Assembly: GCF_001753165.1 (NCBI RefSeq)
Contig: NZ_CP017448.1
Span: 1,258,462-1,322,461 of the forward strand
Origin: Acidihalobacter aeolianus
Lineage (GTDB): Bacteria > Pseudomonadota > Gammaproteobacteria > DSM-5130 > Acidihalobacteraceae
Direction: 5' to 3'
DNA: 64,000 nucleotides
In this document: positions 28,351-38,563 of the stretch, piece after piece
Numbering within the stretch: the stretch's first letter is position 1
How the letters are laid out: each line of letters starts with the position of its first letter
The notes under the pieces: model-generated
Told to the model about the DNA's origin: nothing
Databases searched by the model: none
What the model saw: the letters and a program-made list of their open reading frames with translations, nothing else
Position numbers and translations under genes: made by a program

Positions 28351-28833
28351 GTGCACGCGCACAACATTCCTCTGCGTTTTGCCATTGCCTTAGGATTTTT
28401 ATTTGACAGTGGTATGGTGTGGGCGCTTCCAGCCACGCAACTCGATCCGGGACGTTGGCGCATCACTACCCATCAGGAAATTGCGGGGGCATCGTTTTCT
28501 TTCATGCCTCGGCATCGTGAGTTGTGTCTTTCGCCTCGTCATCCATTCCCTGGAGTTGGCGAGGCAGATTGTCGGAAAATCTTATTAGGTCATCACGGGC
28601 CGACATTCACATGGCGTCTGCATTGCACGCCACCTGGTGCGATGCCGGCTACGGGGCAAGCTCGAATCCGCTACTCAGGACAGCGTCTGTCTGGCGGGGT
28701 GCGCCTAGTCATCGCCGGTAACCGGGATTTGCTGCATACCTCGCGTCCCATCCGCTTGCATTTGAACGAGCAGATGAGTGGCCGGCGAATCGGGCCCTGC
28801 GATCAGGCAAGCGACAAAGCGGATCTGGGTTAG
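28351..28833 (+). CDS. Predicted secreted DUF3617 protein
   Basis: The product of about 160 residues starts with a signal-peptide-like segment (LRFAIALGFLFDSGMVWALP), then PGRWRITTHQEIAG, CLSPRHPFPGVG, ADCRKILLGHHG, FTWRLHCTP and ARIRYSGQRLSGGVRL. This order of W, spaced cysteines and a YSG-type strand matches DUF3617, a family of small exported proteins of unknown role. The start is uncertain: GTG 28351 is used because it opens the signal peptide; no good ribosome-binding site is seen. Its end overlaps the convergent PLD-like gene by 4 bp. Confidence 0.6.
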   Translation: MHAHNIPLRFAIALGFLFDSGMVWALPATQLDPGRWRITTHQEIAGASFSFMPRHRELCLSPRHPFPGVGEADCRKILLGHHGPTFTWRLHCTPPGAMPATGQARIRYSGQRLSGGVRLVIAGNRDLLHTSRPIRLHLNEQMSGRRIGPCDQASDKADLG

Positions 28834-29714
28834 GCCACCGGGCTGGCCCGTCTCCAGTCACGATCGAACGCGGCGCGCAGTGCACCCACACTATGCCCGC
28901 GCAACACGATGCCCACGTCCCGGCTCGAATGCAGCACGCTCCAGGACAGATTCTGAGAGCCAACGAATCCCTGTGTCGGGCCGGCGATCATGGTCCCCTG
29001 GATATTCAGGCCGCGTAGATAGCGAACCTGCACGCCGGCACCCAGTACCCCCTTGAGGTTGGCATGATCATAGCGGCTCAGCGTGGCTGGCAGGATCACG
29101 CGTGCCTCCCGTCCCTTGCGTTCGAGCGCATGAATGATTCTGGGTAGGTAACCGAATTTGCGTGCTTCCAGGTCGACGGGACCGGATTGCAGCAACAGGT
29201 GGGCGAGTGGACGCGATTTGCTGGGAGAGACCAGCAGTATGCGGCGGGGATCTCTGCCGACATGCTGGCGGAGCCAATCCGCGTCGAAAACCTGGGCGAG
29301 GGCGTTGTTGACGACAGGGTCGTGACTGATCCACAGGTTGCCCCGTGCGTGAAAGATGGCGCGCCAGGTGAGATTTTCACTGTCGACGAGGCACGGGCCG
29401 CGTCCCTGATCGTCGACCACGATATGCGCATGATCGATGGCATAGCGGTGTGAAAAGCGATAGGGGCTCCAGCGCACTTCCGCGCCTGTCACAGCGAGCC
29501 TATGGAATTCCTCACGGGCCCAACCGACCGGTCGTCCTTTCGGACGGGGTGCCAGGATGACCTGAACCGTCACACCGTGGTGCACTGCAGCGGCAATCGC
29601 GTCGATGACCGCGGTATCGTCGAGTTCGTAGGCGTCAATGGCAACCTGGCGACGTGCGGCGCGAATGACCTGGACGATGGGAGTGGGGCCGGAGTGAGGT
29701 TCGGTGTAGAGCAT
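28830..29714 (-). CDS. Phospholipase D-like protein with degenerate HKD motifs
   Basis: The 294-residue protein has the duplicated PLD fold. The first HxKxxxxD motif reads HAHIVVDD (H95, H97 in place of Lys, D102), and the second is replaced by QGTMIAGP before FVGSQNL, so its His, Lys and Asp are lost. Supporting PLD features remain: DSENLTW and GSQNLSW after each motif, and VAIDAYELDD near the start. It is probably catalytically inactive. ATG 29714 gives the family-like beginning MLYTEPHSG. Confidence 0.75.
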   Translation of the reverse strand: MLYTEPHSGPTPIVQVIRAARRQVAIDAYELDDTAVIDAIAAAVHHGVTVQVILAPRPKGRPVGWAREEFHRLAVTGAEVRWSPYRFSHRYAIDHAHIVVDDQGRGPCLVDSENLTWRAIFHARGNLWISHDPVVNNALAQVFDADWLRQHVGRDPRRILLVSPSKSRPLAHLLLQSGPVDLEARKFGYLPRIIHALERKGREARVILPATLSRYDHANLKGVLGAGVQVRYLRGLNIQGTMIAGPTQGFVGSQNLSWSVLHSSRDVGIVLRGHSVGALRAAFDRDWRRASPVA

Positions 29715-29793: not shown

Positions 29794-30478
29794 TTATTTG
29801 CTGAAAGTGAAACGTTTCTCGCGAAACAGCTTCAGGCATGCATCTACGACAGCCCTGTCGTAAAGCTTGCCACGATGCTTGCGAATTTCGGCTAGAGCTA
29901 ATTTGATACCCAGGCCAGCGCGATACGGGCGGTGTGAGGACATGGAATCGACTACGTCGGCAACAGCAAGTATGCGGGCCTCGATAAGAATATTTTCGTT
30001 CTTCAGCCCTTGTGGATAGCCAGAGCCATCCATGCGTTCATGATGTTGCAATACAGCCTGTGCGATAGGCCAGGGAAATTCGATGCCTTTGAGGATCTCA
30101 TACCCGTTTTGCGAATGTGTTTTAACCATTTCGTATTCAATGGGGCTTAACTTGGCTGGTTTGCTTAGGATTTCTGCTGGGATATGAATTTTCCCGATAT
30201 CGTGAACAATACCGGCCAGATACACGCCGTTCGCACATTCATCACCTAAGCCCATTTCTTGTGCGATTGCAAAGGCTAATTCTGCCACTCTGAGTTGATG
30301 TCCTGCTGTATACAGATCCCGCATCTCAACCACAGTTGCGACTGCCTGGATGGTGTCCACCATGGTTTTACGTAGATGCTCAGCATGGTTTTCGCTTTCT
30401 TGGATGGCATGATCTCGCTCGGCACGTACCCGTAAACTGAAAATGCCATAGGCTAGATTGCCTGCTACTTCTTCGAGT
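29794..30478 (-). pseudogene. 3' part of an IS66-disrupted sensor/HD-GYP phosphodiesterase gene
   Basis: Encodes the end of a GAF domain and an HD-GYP domain. The latter has HDIGKI and HHERMDGSGYP, the hallmark residues of c-di-GMP phosphodiesterases that make GMP. In frame upstream of ATG 30363 the sequence continues as LLEEVAGNLAYGIFSLRVRA, exactly where a GAF domain ends, until the IS66 boundary. This frame joins to the 5' part at 32191-33461. ATG 30363 could start an internal 189-residue HD-GYP protein, but promoter and ribosome-binding site are unclear. Confidence 0.88.
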
Positions 30479-30486
30479 AAATTTAT

Positions 30487-32190
30487 GTAACTACTCAGCT
30501 AATTCTCAGAGATCGCCAGAGCAAAAGCCGGTAGCTTGCGATCGAATACTAGGCGCAACGCCTCCGAAGCCGTGACCCCCTGCTTTCGGCAGGTCGATAG
30601 ATATCCCCGTATGCGGCAAAACATCGCGGCACCCTCCAGGCTGCGGAAGCAGCCGGAGATCTTCTGCTGCACTTTGGTCATACGGATATCGTTCTCCGCC
30701 TGATTGTTCGTGAACGGCACATTGACGTCCACCATGAAACGCAGCACATCGTCTTCATAGGCCATCAGACGCTCCAGCAGATTGCGGGCCTTGCTCCGCT
30801 TGATCCGCCCCCGAGGCTTGTTGTCGGGTGGTTTTTCCGGCTCAGGGCATTCCAGTTGCCCCGCCTCGAGCACATCTCGGTAGCGCTGCCGGTAAGCATT
30901 GGCCTCGGTCAGCGGCAGGATGCCGCCAGCGTTCTCGACGGCCTGATGAATCTCTCTGAGCAGCTTGCCCATCGCTTCCGCCCATTGTTGTCCGTCCTGC
31001 TCGAATGCTCGTTCCAGTTCGCGCAGGTGGTGGGCATTGCACAGGGCATGGGTGCAGTCCCGATAACGGTAATAGGGTTTCCAATGGTCATGACACAGCA
31101 CACCGCGGAACCGTGGCAGGATCCCGATCGCGTCCATCGCCTCCTGGCCTCGCTTACTGTGGACCTGATAATGCGTCCAATCAGCATTGGACAGACCATG
31201 CAGCCAATGGCGTTTGCCATCAATGTTGACCCCGGTCTCGTCGGCATGAGCGGACACGGCTTTGGCCAATGCCGTTTTGCTGATCGCCTCAAAGGCCGCC
31301 AGGCGGGTAAATGCCTCGCGATTGAAGTTCACCAGTGAACCATCGCTCAAAGGGATGCCCAACTGATCGGCAAAGTAATCCTGGATCCGCTTGTAGGGCA
31401 AGAGCTGATATTGGGACAGATAGACGGCATGGGCCTTGAGGCCGGAACCATACTGCACCTTCTTATCCACCCCTTCCGGGAATGAAGCCACAAAACGTTG
31501 GCCTGATTCATTCTCCAGGATCTGCGCCCGATACTCGGTCACGATCCGGCTGATGTCGATATCAAAAACCTGGCGAGTCTCGAAACCCGCCTCGGTATAG
31601 CAGCCTTTCGGCAAGCGACGACGATCGATCTTGAGGACCTCGATCTCATCGGGATGCTCGACCGGGCGCAAGGTCTTGCCCACGTGCCCCGGCTGGCCAC
31701 CGGAAGGTCGGCTTGAGCGCACACGCTGGCTGCGTGGCCGATTGGGATCCGATGCCGGCGGCTGACTGCTGTTGCGGCTATTGAGCCCGAGACGGTTGAG
31801 TAACACGACGAACAACATGAGCATCATCTCGATACTGGCGCGGAGTGCCGGAGATAGGTCTTTCTCCTGCTCCAGTTGCGCCCTGACCTGTGCCAGGGTG
31901 ATCTCGATATCGACGCCGTCGATCCGCACGCAAGACTGCTCCAAAGAAGTAATGAAGCTATTATCTCACGGGTTTTGAAGTGCCAATTTTCTCGTTTGTA
32001 AGGCGATCTGGCGGCGTAAAATAATTGACTGACGGTGGGGCAGTGCCTCGCGTGATGTCGCAAGGAAGACTACGCCTCTGTCGCTTTCGGAGACCAATAA
32101 TCGCACTCGTTACAGCGCCGCCATATTTTCAAAAAAACTACCAAAAACCCTGTCAAGTACTTTTTGTAATTATTTTCACTGAGTAGTTAC
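30487..32190 (-). mobile_element. IS66-family insertion sequence, copy 1
   Basis: A 1704-bp element with terminal repeats starting GTAACTACTCAG at both ends (12 bp identical) and an 8-bp target duplication AAATTTAT at 30479-30486 and 32191-32198. It carries a single transposase gene and no tnpA/tnpB, as in the ISBst12-type branch of IS66. It interrupts a c-di-GMP phosphodiesterase gene. Copy 2, at 36860-38563, has the same length in the opposite orientation. Confidence 0.93.
30499..31944 (-). CDS. IS66-family transposase (copy 1)
   Basis: The 481-residue transposase has N-terminal helices (LAQVRAQLEQEKDLSPALRA), a Gln/Arg-rich linker (SRPSGGQPGHVGKT), and a DDE domain with Asp in HADETGVNIDG, Asp in LCHDHWKPYY and Glu in NNQAENDIRM. 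Its translated sequence is identical to that of copy 2. The TTG start at 31944 gives the full family length. About 245 bp of non-coding, T-rich DNA lies between it and the element end. Confidence 0.95.
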   Translation of the reverse strand: MEQSCVRIDGVDIEITLAQVRAQLEQEKDLSPALRASIEMMLMLFVVLLNRLGLNSRNSSQPPASDPNRPRSQRVRSSRPSGGQPGHVGKTLRPVEHPDEIEVLKIDRRRLPKGCYTEAGFETRQVFDIDISRIVTEYRAQILENESGQRFVASFPEGVDKKVQYGSGLKAHAVYLSQYQLLPYKRIQDYFADQLGIPLSDGSLVNFNREAFTRLAAFEAISKTALAKAVSAHADETGVNIDGKRHWLHGLSNADWTHYQVHSKRGQEAMDAIGILPRFRGVLCHDHWKPYYRYRDCTHALCNAHHLRELERAFEQDGQQWAEAMGKLLREIHQAVENAGGILPLTEANAYRQRYRDVLEAGQLECPEPEKPPDNKPRGRIKRSKARNLLERLMAYEDDVLRFMVDVNVPFTNNQAENDIRMTKVQQKISGCFRSLEGAAMFCRIRGYLSTCRKQGVTASEALRLVFDRKLPAFALAISEN

Positions 32191-33461
32191 AAATTTATTT
32201 CATCATTGCTAAAGGTGAACTCATCTCTCGAGTAAATCGTTAAACACCCAAGGGTATGGTTTCTGTCCATGATCGGAATAGCGGTACAAGAAGCGTAGCC
32301 AAAGCGGCCGGCTAGGTTACGCCAGGGAGTGAAACGGTGATCGTTATACATATCGCCGACGTTTTGAGTCTCACCCGTGCGAACCGCTAGCCCACAGGGG
32401 CCATTCGCGTTTGGTCCGTCCCCCCAACTGAGTTGGAGTTCGTTGACATAAGCCTCTCCATCTCCGGCAATGGCCACTGGCGTAATATTCTTCTCAGGGT
32501 CATTCTGGGCCAAACCGATCCATGCAAGCACATAGTCGCCGCTGTCGACCAGCATTTCGCAAATATTTTGCATCAGCTTGGGTTCATTTTCGGCATGTAA
32601 TAATGCGTTGTTTGCTTCGTTCAAGGTTCTGAGTACACGGTTCAGGCGAAGCAGTTCGGCTTCGTGTTTTTTGCGTTCGCTGATATCTCGTGCAATGCTG
32701 ATCCAGTAAGGACGATCGAGTTCGATTACTTGTACGCTGACTTCAACGGGAAACTCTTTTCCGTCTTTGCGTCGATGTACGCTTTCGAAACGTGCAACAC
32801 CTGATTTCCCCAGCTCGGAAAGTACTCGATTCGCTATCTCTGATTTGTTTTGCCGGGCAGCTGGGTCGATGTCGAGTACGGTCATTTGCAACAGATCGTC
32901 CCTTTGGTAGCCGAGACTACGGCACTCGGCGTCATTGACGTCCATAAAGCGCATGGTTTCTGGATCGACAACTTCAATTCCATCGGTTGATTGATCGAGC
33001 AGCGTGCGGAAAAGTTTTAGTTTTTCCATTGTCTCGCGCAGTGACTGCTCTGCTGCCTTGCGGTGGCGGACCTGTTCTTCCTGCTGTAGTGCTTGCTGAA
33101 TACTTAGCGGTAGTCTTGCGATGTCTGATATGGGTACGTAATCGCTGGCGCCATCGTGAATCAAAGCGACAGCTTCCGTAGCCTTGAGGTCTCCGCCGAC
33201 GAAAATGACTGGAATATCTGGGTGGTTTCTACGTATGTCGCAGAGGATGATTTTATCCGCATATCGCGGGATGTCTACATCCGCGAGCACTGCGTGGGGA
33301 AGGAAACTTTCCAGATTTTGACGCAATGTTTTGACTGCATGCACATGGCGAGTCACGCACGCCATGCGGCTCTGCACGAGTGGACGCTCGAATCTTTGGG
33401 CATCGGTGCGAGGTGGGTCCACGATCAGGATGCGCAGATCATCATGCCTTTTGTCGTCCAT
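32191..33461 (-). pseudogene. 5' part of the IS66-disrupted REC-PAS-GAF-HD-GYP gene
   Basis: Encodes about 423 residues: a degenerate receiver (about 1-130; VLADVDIPRYADKI, with the usual Lys near VPISDIARL missing), a PAS domain (LFRTLLDQSTDGIEVVDPET), and most of a GAF domain (WIGLAQNDPEKNITPVAIAG; NLAGRFGYASCTAIPIMDRN). It breaks at DEINL at the IS66 boundary. The 3' part at 29794-30478 continues in the same frame once one target duplication is removed, giving 651 residues in total. Confidence 0.88.
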
Positions 33462-33647: not shown

Positions 33648-34496
33648 CTATAAACCAGTGCGGCCGGCCCAGTCGCGCGCGAATTGGGCGGCCACGCGAC
33701 CGCTGCGCGAGCCGCGTTCCAGCGCGAAGCGCAGGGCTTCGGGGCGTACTGCCTCCTCGTCGAAGACGATCTGCATGCGCTGCAGGGTGTGGTAGACGAT
33801 GCCGAGGTAGTCCTCCTGGCGGAAGGCGTGAAAACCGATCCACAGGCCGAAGCGTTCGGACAGGGAAATCTTCTCTTCAACCGCCTCGCCATGGTGAATC
33901 TCGCCGTCGGCCACGCGCGTGTCCAGGTTGTCGCGCTGGTATTCGGGCAGCAGGTGACGGCGATTGGAAGTCGCGTAGATGAGAACGTTGTCCGGGGCGG
34001 CGGCAACCGAACCGTCCAGCGTTGCCTTGAGCGCCTTGTAGCTCGGGTCGTCGGCCTCGAAGGAAAGATCGTCGGAGAAGATCACGAAGCGTTCGGGGCG
34101 TTCGTACAACGGCTCGACGATCTCGGGCAGGTCGGCCAGATCGCGCCGTTCGACCTCGATCAGGCGCAGTCCCTCGCCGGCGAACTGCTCCAGCATGGCG
34201 CGGATGAGCGAAGACTTGCCGGTGCCGCGCGAACCCCACAGCAGGGCATTGTTGGCCGGTAGGCCGCGCACGAACTGCGCCGTGTTGCGCGCCAGCAAGG
34301 ACTTCTGGCGCTCGATGCCGAGCAGGGCGTCGGGCTCGATCAGTTGCGGGTGGCGTACCGGTTGCAGGTAACCGGGCCGGCGCCAGCGGAAGGCCACAGC
34401 GTCCCAGTCCGTTTCTGGAGCGGCGGCGGGCAGCAGGGGTTCGAGGCGGTCGAGCAAGGCGTCCAGGCGGCTGAACAGGCGGTCGATGTCGGTCAT
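33648..34496 (-). CDS. DUF815-family AAA ATPase
   Basis: The 282-residue protein has Walker A GSRGTGKSS (about 88-96), Walker B-like RFVIFSDDLSFE (about 136-147) and sensor-like LIYATSNRRHLLPEY. This matches the DUF815 ATP-binding family. The role is unknown. It lies 81 bp downstream of the methyltransferase gene on the same strand. Confidence 0.9.
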   Translation of the reverse strand: MTDIDRLFSRLDALLDRLEPLLPAAAPETDWDAVAFRWRRPGYLQPVRHPQLIEPDALLGIERQKSLLARNTAQFVRGLPANNALLWGSRGTGKSSLIRAMLEQFAGEGLRLIEVERRDLADLPEIVEPLYERPERFVIFSDDLSFEADDPSYKALKATLDGSVAAAPDNVLIYATSNRRHLLPEYQRDNLDTRVADGEIHHGEAVEEKISLSERFGLWIGFHAFRQEDYLGIVYHTLQRMQIVFDEEAVRPEALRFALERGSRSGRVAAQFARDWAGRTGL

Positions 34497-36273: not shown

Positions 36274-36284
36274 ATACCCATGTG

Positions 36285-36860
36285 ATGTGTCACCCAACAA
36301 CCGACAAAGTTGGCTCAACGAGAATTTCAAGTCCACCGATAAAAATCGAACTGATTCAGGAATACGAGATTTCGCCGACCGCTCACGCAAAGATCATCGA
36401 TCTGAAGAACCGCTGCTTTCCCGATCATCGGAAGCCCTGGTCGTACTACAAGCAACTCCCGCACTTTCGCTTTCTGGTTTACGACGATACCTCCCTGATT
36501 GCGCATATGGGTGTGGATCACCGTGTAATCGCGGTCGACGACCAACCACGTACCATTTTCGGGATCGTGGATTTGTGTGTCGACCCGCAATTCCGCGATC
36601 GGGGGATTGCGTCCGAATTGCTTGAGAAGCTGTCTGAACTGGCGAGGCGTTCGCGCATCGATTTTCTGTTCGCCATCGTAAACCGTGCCCGACTTTACGA
36701 GCGCAACGGTTTTCAGGGCTTGGACGCGCTTTGTTTATGGTTGCGTATCAACGACCACAAGAACTACGGCGTAGCGGTTGAAAGGATTGCCAACGAAATC
36801 ATGATCAAGCAGATTGGGGAAAAAGGCTGGGTGGATGGGCCGATCAATCTGCTTGGATAG
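36285..36860 (+). CDS. GNAT-family N-acetyltransferase with IS66-altered end
   Basis: The product of about 191 residues has the GNAT acetyl-CoA-binding motif (FGIVDLCVDPQFRDRGIASE, then LLEKL) and the late strand LYERNGFQGLD. Substrate is unknown. Its TAG stop codon is made by the first base of IS66 copy 2; without the insertion the frame would continue three residues (Tyr-Met-Phe) to TGA at the far side. The loss is small, so activity may be intact. The start may be GTG 36282 or ATG 36285. It appears more AT-rich than the core genes, suggesting transfer. Confidence 0.78.
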   Translation: MCHPTTDKVGSTRISSPPIKIELIQEYEISPTAHAKIIDLKNRCFPDHRKPWSYYKQLPHFRFLVYDDTSLIAHMGVDHRVIAVDDQPRTIFGIVDLCVDPQFRDRGIASELLEKLSELARRSRIDFLFAIVNRARLYERNGFQGLDALCLWLRINDHKNYGVAVERIANEIMIKQIGEKGWVDGPINLLG

Positions 36861-38563
36861 TAACTACTCAGTGAAAATAATTACAAAAAGTACTTGACAG
36901 GGTTTTTGGTAGTTTTTTTGAAAATATGGCGGCGCTGTAACGAGTGCGATTATTGGTCTCCGAAAGCGACAGAGGCGTAGTCTTCCTTGCGACATCACGC
37001 GAGGCACTGCCCCACCGTCAGTCAATTATTTTACGCCGCCAGATCGCCTTACAAACGAGAAAATTGGCACTTCAAAACCCGTGAGATAATAGCTTCATTA
37101 CTTCTTTGGAGCAGTCTTGCGTGCGGATCGACGGCGTCGATATCGAGATCACCCTGGCACAGGTCAGGGCGCAACTGGAGCAGGAGAAAGACCTATCTCC
37201 GGCACTCCGCGCCAGTATCGAGATGATGCTCATGTTGTTCGTCGTGTTACTCAACCGTCTCGGGCTCAATAGCCGCAACAGCAGTCAGCCGCCGGCATCG
37301 GATCCCAATCGGCCACGCAGCCAGCGTGTGCGCTCAAGCCGACCTTCCGGTGGCCAGCCGGGGCACGTGGGCAAGACCTTGCGCCCGGTCGAGCATCCCG
37401 ATGAGATCGAGGTCCTCAAGATCGATCGTCGTCGCTTGCCGAAAGGCTGCTATACCGAGGCGGGTTTCGAGACTCGCCAGGTTTTTGATATCGACATCAG
37501 CCGGATCGTGACCGAGTATCGGGCGCAGATCCTGGAGAATGAATCAGGCCAACGTTTTGTGGCTTCATTCCCGGAAGGGGTGGATAAGAAGGTGCAGTAT
37601 GGTTCCGGCCTCAAGGCCCATGCCGTCTATCTGTCCCAATATCAGCTCTTGCCCTACAAGCGGATCCAGGATTACTTTGCCGATCAGTTGGGCATCCCTT
37701 TGAGCGATGGTTCACTGGTGAACTTCAATCGCGAGGCATTTACCCGCCTGGCGGCCTTTGAGGCGATCAGCAAAACGGCATTGGCCAAAGCCGTGTCCGC
37801 TCATGCCGACGAGACCGGGGTCAACATTGATGGCAAACGCCATTGGCTGCATGGTCTGTCCAATGCTGATTGGACGCATTATCAGGTCCACAGTAAGCGA
37901 GGCCAGGAGGCGATGGACGCGATCGGGATCCTGCCACGGTTCCGCGGTGTGCTGTGTCATGACCATTGGAAACCCTATTACCGTTATCGGGACTGCACCC
38001 ATGCCCTGTGCAATGCCCACCACCTGCGCGAACTGGAACGAGCATTCGAGCAGGACGGACAACAATGGGCGGAAGCGATGGGCAAGCTGCTCAGAGAGAT
38101 TCATCAGGCCGTCGAGAACGCTGGCGGCATCCTGCCGCTGACCGAGGCCAATGCTTACCGGCAGCGCTACCGAGATGTGCTCGAGGCGGGGCAACTGGAA
38201 TGCCCTGAGCCGGAAAAACCACCCGACAACAAGCCTCGGGGGCGGATCAAGCGGAGCAAGGCCCGCAATCTGCTGGAGCGTCTGATGGCCTATGAAGACG
38301 ATGTGCTGCGTTTCATGGTGGACGTCAATGTGCCGTTCACGAACAATCAGGCGGAGAACGATATCCGTATGACCAAAGTGCAGCAGAAGATCTCCGGCTG
38401 CTTCCGCAGCCTGGAGGGTGCCGCGATGTTTTGCCGCATACGGGGATATCTATCGACCTGCCGAAAGCAGGGGGTCACGGCTTCGGAGGCGTTGCGCCTA
38501 GTATTCGATCGCAAGCTACCGGCTTTTGCTCTGGCGATCTCTGAGAATTAGCTGAGTAGTTAC
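36860..38563 (+). mobile_element. IS66-family insertion sequence, copy 2
   Basis: A 1704-bp element, opposite in orientation to copy 1, with the same GTAACTACTCAG ends and its own 8-bp target duplication CTTGGATA at 36852-36859 and 38564-38571. Because each copy has its own matching duplication, both arose by separate insertions and no inversion between them has been fixed. The sequence appears identical to copy 1, so at least one insertion is recent. Confidence 0.94.
37106..38551 (+). CDS. IS66-family transposase (copy 2)
   Basis: The 481-residue transposase is identical in translation to copy 1, with the DDE residues in HADETGVNIDG, LCHDHWKPYY and NNQAENDIRM. It starts with TTG at 37106. 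A TTGACA at 36893-36898 in the leader could be a -35 element for it; no convincing -10 was found. Confidence 0.95.
   Translation: MEQSCVRIDGVDIEITLAQVRAQLEQEKDLSPALRASIEMMLMLFVVLLNRLGLNSRNSSQPPASDPNRPRSQRVRSSRPSGGQPGHVGKTLRPVEHPDEIEVLKIDRRRLPKGCYTEAGFETRQVFDIDISRIVTEYRAQILENESGQRFVASFPEGVDKKVQYGSGLKAHAVYLSQYQLLPYKRIQDYFADQLGIPLSDGSLVNFNREAFTRLAAFEAISKTALAKAVSAHADETGVNIDGKRHWLHGLSNADWTHYQVHSKRGQEAMDAIGILPRFRGVLCHDHWKPYYRYRDCTHALCNAHHLRELERAFEQDGQQWAEAMGKLLREIHQAVENAGGILPLTEANAYRQRYRDVLEAGQLECPEPEKPPDNKPRGRIKRSKARNLLERLMAYEDDVLRFMVDVNVPFTNNQAENDIRMTKVQQKISGCFRSLEGAAMFCRIRGYLSTCRKQGVTASEALRLVFDRKLPAFALAISEN

What the first reader, a model, noticed from the sequence alone, without database searches (positions are those of the whole stretch)
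29794..33461. IS66 insertion splits a REC-PAS-GAF-HD-GYP gene; the frame rejoins exactly
The 5' part ends at DEINL at the right edge of the element and the 3' part starts with LLEEVAGNLAYGIF at the left edge, joining in frame through one copy of the 8-bp duplication AAATTTAT. The rejoined gene has 1956 bp, 651 residues plus stop, with domains in the expected order. The receiver appears degenerate. Precise excision would restore the protein, so this may be a recent, reversible loss of a c-di-GMP phosphodiesterase in a strain with two intact diguanylate cyclases in the same window.
Basis: seen in the sequence. Interest (0 to 1): 0.7.

Follow-up and report, generated by a model that had tools for sequence, protein, structure and literature searches.

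The report
Jumping gene splits an HD-GYP gene
A recently multiplied jumping gene has landed in, and split in two, a signalling-enzyme gene that this bacterium had probably itself acquired from elsewhere; the reading is sound but the event is of an ordinary kind.

Summary
A 1704-bp IS66-family element (window 30487-32190, ISBst12-like) sits inside a 1956-bp minus-strand gene, with a perfect 8-bp target duplication. Rejoined, the gene encodes 651 residues: degenerate receiver, PAS, GAF, HD-GYP. Relatives confirm the join: 37 of 97 homologous frames align across it, and L020 has the same four domains in order. In-frame rejoining is expected of any clean insertion.

The insertion is young: 14 copies in the genome, 7 identical and 7 with one shared difference; no match in the 3 relatives searched.

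The gene itself looks acquired: 50% GC against 61% for the window, no close match in four same-family genomes, and a slot that in both congeners holds a TfoX_N-type gene not found in this genome.

"Reversible loss of a c-di-GMP phosphodiesterase" is only partly supported. Excision was not tested; one ISBst12-group element is reported as copy-and-paste; the HD-GYP domain survives whole behind the transposase gene; and the genome has 57 GGDEF and 36 EAL matches. A close published precedent exists in Deinococcus radiodurans. Low interest.

The parts
32187..33461 (-). 5' fragment of the split gene: degenerate receiver, PAS, GAF (424 aa); its stop TAA is supplied by the element's end
29794..30486 (-). 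3' fragment: end of the linker plus complete HD-GYP domain; the frame is open back to the tnpC stop (234 aa)
29848..30342 (-). HD-GYP domain (Pfam HD_5), HDxGK and HHExxDGxGYP motifs present
30487..32190 (-). IS66-family element, 1704 bp, ISBst12-like (single large ORF)
   Evidence: terminal repeats compared with ISDge4
30499..31944 (-). tnpC transposase, 481 aa, TTG start; its TAG stop is in frame with the HD-GYP fragment
30479..30486 (.). target duplication AAATTTAT, copy 1
32191..32198 (.). target duplication AAATTTAT, copy 2
36860..38563 (+). second, 100% identical copy of the element, inverted, with its own duplication CTTGGATA
33648..34496 (-). conserved upstream neighbour, DUF815 ATPase
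28830..29714 (-). conserved downstream neighbour, PLD-like protein

Best explanation
A foreign signalling gene (degenerate receiver, PAS, GAF, HD-GYP; 651 residues) came to occupy the slot between the DUF815 ATPase and the PLD-like gene in this lineage, where both congeners have a TfoX_N-type gene. Later, during a burst of one ISBst12-type IS66 element to 14 copies, a copy inserted between the GAF and HD-GYP domains with an 8-bp target duplication and split the gene. The full-length regulated enzyme can no longer be made from this allele. The 5' half stops at the element's first bases. The 3' half keeps a complete HD-GYP domain directly behind tnpC, and is most likely unexpressed or weakly expressed. 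Shown: the insertion, its duplication, copy number, near-identity of copies, homology across the junction, absence from the relatives examined, GC contrast. Inferred: foreign origin, order of events, lack of expression, loss of function.
For: Exact element borders, 8-bp duplication and open 651-codon join. 14 copies, 7 identical and 7 with one shared substitution, 11 of 14 with exact duplications. Element DNA not matched in G001, G002 or G003. Best matches of the joined protein in the four same-family genomes G001-G004 are only 3.7e-29, 7.4e-29, 4.8e-9 and 2.4e-28. Their ATPase and PLD matches are neighbours, 732, 548, 126 and 166 bp apart; in G001 and G002 the gap holds a TfoX_N-type gene (Pfam run on the G002 protein only). 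Gene GC 0.50 and third-position GC 0.50, against 0.66/0.84 and 0.63/0.70 in the two neighbours; 1 of 302 same-size windows is that low. 37 of 97 homologous frames span the junction in a single alignment; in a 20-row alignment none of the 19 relatives has a gap or insertion over residues 405-440; L020 has all four domains in order.
Against: One genome per species is held, so no allele from another strain of the same species could be looked for. The donor is not identified (best long alignment 51%). The alternative that the gene is ancestral and was lost in four relatives is not formally excluded. The TfoX_N-type gene is not seen in G003, was not searched in G004, and their gaps are too short for it, so what the slot held in the ancestor is uncertain. 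No expression data; no terminator-like site was found on the coding strand between tnpC and the 3' fragment, so read-through transcription is possible.
Confidence: 0.87

Rival explanations
1. The element frees the HD-GYP domain: the 3' fragment is transcribed together with tnpC and translated from ATG at 30363 (or by readthrough of the tnpC TAG), giving a sensor-less phosphodiesterase.
For: Same strand as tnpC; the tnpC stop is 12 bp from the element's end and in frame with the fragment, whose frame stays open for 234 codons. No terminator-like site on that strand in between. HD_5 domain complete at E 6e-40; seven of eight PmGH metal ligands plus the D183, K225 and D308 equivalents present. 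A D. radiodurans paper suggests the same for its split HD-GYP/GGDEF gene (PMC11219805, passages).
Against: The scan found no promoter-like site ahead of tnpC on its strand. No evident ribosome-binding site, judged by eye, before ATG 30363, which lies 138 nt beyond the stop. An in-frame stop is a 1-in-3 chance. Transposase genes are usually weakly expressed, and HD-GYP domains often need a dimerising partner region (both recalled).
Confidence: 0.1
2. Reversible switch: precise excision of the element restores the gene at a useful rate.
For: Perfect 8-bp duplications make precise excision possible in principle. In D. radiodurans, strains lacking copies of another element, ISDra2, have the genes restored (PMC11219805, passages); that element is of another family (recalled).
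Against: Any clean insertion has this property. ISDge4, an ISBst12-group element, was reported as copy-and-paste with donor copies retained, though the paper sets it apart from other IS66 members in this (PMC12898284, passages). 10 other copies in the genome also carry exact duplications, so nothing marks this one out.
Confidence: 0.03
3. The two parts were always separate genes and the element merely lies between them.
For: Both parts have start codons available.
Against: 37 of 97 homologous frames align through the junction in one piece; L020 has the same four-domain protein; the GAF domain is cut before the end of its model.
Confidence: 0.01

Closest known systems
IS2621 insertion into DR_A0342 (HD-GYP + GGDEF protein), Deinococcus radiodurans ATCC 13939K (PMC11219805, passages)
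   Same: An IS splits a c-di-GMP signalling gene; the downstream part keeps its intact domains (the paper says data not shown) and the authors suggest it may still work.
   Different: Different IS, host and domain set; there a second strain with the uninterrupted gene is known.
ISDge4, ISBst12 group of the IS66 family, Deinococcus geothermalis (PMC12898284, passages)
   Same: Single transposase ORF, 8-bp duplication, terminal repeats GTGACTACTCAGCA / GTAACTGCTCAGCA close to GTAACTACTCAG here.
   Different: Transposase 449 aa against 481 aa; transposition was observed there and only inferred here.
PmGH, GAF-HD-GYP phosphodiesterase of Persephonella marina (PMC4159591, passages; taken to be chain 4mcw)
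   Same: GAF next to HD-GYP; HDxGK, HHExxDGxGYP, and seven of eight metal ligands.
   Different: The ligand E185 is a tyrosine here (Y-T-A), which fits the paper's Y/F subfamily.
3'3'-cGAMP-specific phosphodiesterase 3 (5z7c)
   Same: HD-GYP match at E 2.1e-34 with the same YTAGH motif.
   Different: Substrate is 3'3'-cGAMP according to the entry name; the substrate here is unknown.

Membership tests
IS66 family, ISBst12 group | IS66 transposase domain | tested here: met
   PF03050 E 1.8e-50; NF033517 304.5 bits over cut-off 180
IS66 family, ISBst12 group | 8-bp target duplication | tested here: met
   AAATTTAT here; exact in 11 of 14 copies, 7 of 8 in one, absent in two
IS66 family, ISBst12 group | single transposase ORF | tested here: met
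   1704 bp with one 481-aa ORF; the other ORFs of 80 aa or more inside it overlap tnpC; shorter ORFs not listed
IS66 family, ISBst12 group | terminal inverted repeats like those of ISDge4 | tested here: met
   compared by eye with ISDge4
IS66 family, ISBst12 group | catalytic DDE residues of the transposase | not tested
   only the domain score was seen
IS66 family, ISBst12 group | active transposition | not testable with these tools
   near-identity of 14 copies is only indirect
HD-GYP phosphodiesterase | HD_5 domain with HDxGK and HHExxDGxGYP motifs | tested here: met
HD-GYP phosphodiesterase | eight metal ligands of PmGH | tested here: inconclusive
   seven conserved; E185 replaced by Y, as the paper describes for its Y/F subfamily
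HD-GYP phosphodiesterase | hydrolysis of c-di-GMP | not testable with these tools
   needs an enzyme assay
Phosphorylatable receiver (REC) domain | acidic pair, acceptor Asp, Thr/Ser, Lys (set recalled) | tested here: not met
   acceptor Asp kept; second acid is P, Thr/Ser is G, Lys is I, against L019, L020 and L030; below Pfam cut-off

The most novel reading that the evidence does not exclude
The insertion did not silence the enzyme but uncoupled it: transcription from the element delivers a sensor-free HD-GYP phosphodiesterase, so an expanding IS has turned an acquired, regulated enzyme into a constitutive one.
Probability: 0.1. Interest if true: 0.4.

Novelty: new member of a known kind. 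Interest (0 to 1): 0.15.

Why it matters
It documents an IS66/ISBst12 burst in what is probably a biomining acidophile, and a two-step history of one signalling gene: gain in a slot that holds a TfoX_N-type gene in both congeners, then disruption. It adds an example of c-di-GMP-type signalling genes being gained and broken. It does not change understanding of IS66 elements or of HD-GYP enzymes.

Tried and rejected
Rejected: separate-gene origin (homology runs through the junction). Rejected as special: the in-frame rejoining, which any clean insertion gives. Rejected as meaningful: the balance against two diguanylate cyclases in the window, given the genome-wide counts.

Led nowhere: a plasmid search with 20 kb of the second contig did not name the organism. 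The element has only partial matches in plasmids (8 records, all 60-80% identity, none covering 80% of it). A search for IS66 family with precise excision gave 3 papers, listings only. Searches for IS66 with HD-GYP (1 paper, listing only), HD-GYP with insertion sequence and further terms (5 papers, one opened for passages) and Acidihalobacter with c-di-GMP (7 papers, listings only) showed nothing about this insertion in the titles and abstract openings of the held library. PMC7760498 and PMC8024623 were looked at by passages only and bore little on the question. Promoter and terminator scan: 2 promoter-like sites against 3.3 expected, neither ahead of tnpC on its strand; 7 terminator-like sites against 4.6 expected; no promoter is claimed.

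Full report
What is there. On the minus strand of the window a gene runs from 33461 to 29794 and is interrupted by a 1704-bp element at 30487-32190. The element ends in GTAACTACTCAG repeats and is flanked by the 8-bp duplication AAATTTAT on both sides; joining through one copy gives 1956 bp, 651 codons and a stop. An 8-base match at given borders has a chance of about 1.5e-5 (4 to the power -8), and a second identical copy at 36860-38563 has a different duplication of its own. The 5' part is stopped at once by TAA from the element's end. The element encodes one IS66 transposase of 481 aa and resembles the ISBst12-group element ISDge4 in its terminal repeats, 8-bp duplication and single ORF (PMC12898284, passages only).

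How the element behaves. The genome (3,363,634 + 162,484 bp) holds 14 copies: 7 identical and 7 with the same single substitution. 11 of 14 have exact 8-bp duplications, one (L006) matches at 7 of 8, and two (L004, L005) show none. The element DNA had no match in 3 of 3 relatives (G001, G002, G003). Among 369 genomes drawn from the class, own genome included, 4 had a transposase at E 1e-100 or better; the 3 other than the own genome were 51-66% identical, and G004 had none. So the burst is recent and seems confined to this lineage, with the caveat that one genome per species is held.

The gene is real as a joined unit. From these 81 loci, 97 homologous reading frames of 150 aa or more were taken; 37 have a single best alignment running across the junction (residues 400-470), and the other 60, some cut by contig ends, do not. 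In an alignment of the joined protein with 19 chosen relatives, none has a gap or insertion over residues 405-440. Four relatives were scanned for domains: L020, a 656-aa MAG frame aligned at 41% over residues 9-643, has receiver, PAS, GAF and HD_5 in that order; L016, L017 and L015 have PAS, GAF and HD_5. The receiver here has kept the acceptor Asp but lost one acid of the pair, the Thr/Ser and the Lys when set beside L019, L020 and L030, and scores below the Pfam cut-off, while that of L020 passes it. The HD-GYP domain looks sound: HDIGK, HHERMDGSGYP, seven of the eight metal ligands of PmGH, and the D183, K225 and D308 equivalents; E185 is Y, which is the Y/F subfamily in the PmGH paper (PMC4159591, passages; numbering of the chain shifted by 6, my own fit). 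Because a chain named 3'3'-cGAMP-specific phosphodiesterase 3 matches as well as PmGH does, I do not commit to c-di-GMP as the substrate.

The gene looks acquired. In the four same-family genomes the best matches of the joined protein are 3.7e-29 (G001), 7.4e-29 (G002), 4.8e-9 (G003) and 2.4e-28 (G004); those of G001, G002 and G004 cover the HD part only, that of G003 was not listed. The two neighbours sit next to each other in all four, with 732 (G001), 548 (G002), 126 (G003) and 166 bp (G004) between the matches, against 3933 bp between the two ORFs here. In G001 and G002 the space holds a TfoX_N-type gene (Pfam run on the G002 protein only), which has no match in the window's genome or in G003; G004 was not searched for it. 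Similarity to G002 stops 11 bases before the end of the ATPase gene and resumes one base before the PLD gene. GC is 0.50 with third-position GC 0.50, against 0.66/0.84 and 0.63/0.70 in the neighbours; 1 of 302 same-size windows, the element removed, is as low. The ten best-listed relatives are 41-51% identical; six of the ten are labelled Curvibacter, Sideroxydans or Gallionella/Gallionellaceae, which I recall as betaproteobacteria. Higher identities further down that list (up to 65%) are for the best segment only. No donor is identified. Ancestral presence with loss in four relatives is possible but less economical.

Function. From this allele the regulated full-length enzyme cannot be made. 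The fate of the 3' half is open. It lies behind tnpC on the same strand, tnpC's TAG is in frame with it, no terminator-like site on that strand separates them, and its domain is whole. Against expression: no promoter-like site ahead of tnpC was found on its strand, and ATG 30363 has no evident ribosome-binding site and lies 138 nt past the stop. I hold a silent or weakly expressed remnant as most likely. The wider network is large: 57 GGDEF, 36 EAL and 4 HD_5 matches, the last in 3 places including this one. The effect of losing one enzyme therefore cannot be read from the two diguanylate cyclases of the window, whose presence is confirmed.

Known or new. A published case is very close: IS2621 splits DR_A0342 in D. 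radiodurans, and the authors note that the downstream part keeps its domains (PMC11219805, passages). The same paper describes genes restored where copies of another element, ISDra2, are absent, so element loss between strains is reported for some families. Nothing specific here supports reversibility; for ISDge4 copy-and-paste movement was reported, in contrast, the paper says, to other IS66 members. I file this as a new member of a known kind.

Organism. Its sizes fit Acidihalobacter aeolianus DSM 14174 (3.36 Mb plus 0.16 Mb plasmid, given as the only species of the genus with a plasmid), and G001 (3,566,941 bp, one contig) fits A. yilgarnensis (3.57 Mb, closed), according to the table in PMC9062700 (passages). 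This is an inference from size alone.

Noticed in passing
36860-38563: A second identical copy of the element, inverted, 4669 bp from the first; it sits at the very end of an ORF (36282-36860, acetyltransferase-like by eye) and shortens its last residues. Both copies have their own matching duplications, so the segment between them shows no sign of inversion.
   Followed up: partly
slot between 29714 and 33648; L130 2132-2473, L131 2140-2496: Both congeners have a TfoX_N-type gene in the slot where this genome has the HD-GYP gene; it has no match in this genome.
   Followed up: yes
L011 747-1502: Another copy of the element lies near the 3' end of a HamA-like gene (Pfam HamA, E 2.9e-11; link to Hachiman phage defence recalled).
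   Followed up: partly
L010, L013: Two more copies split long reading frames: an MgtC-like one (below Pfam cut-off) and one without a Pfam match in its upstream piece.
   Followed up: partly
L004, L005: Two copies on C1 near 3.33 Mb lack any target duplication, which may mean recombination between copies.
   Followed up: no
G000 C1:694774-695475 and C1:705732-706439: Two EAL matches with an internal stop (TGA, TAG), possibly other decayed c-di-GMP genes.
   Followed up: no
G001 C1:107950, G002 C6:443938: Both congeners have an HD-GYP match in a frame of 526-529 aa with no evident counterpart among this genome's HD_5 matches; orthology was not tested.
   Followed up: no
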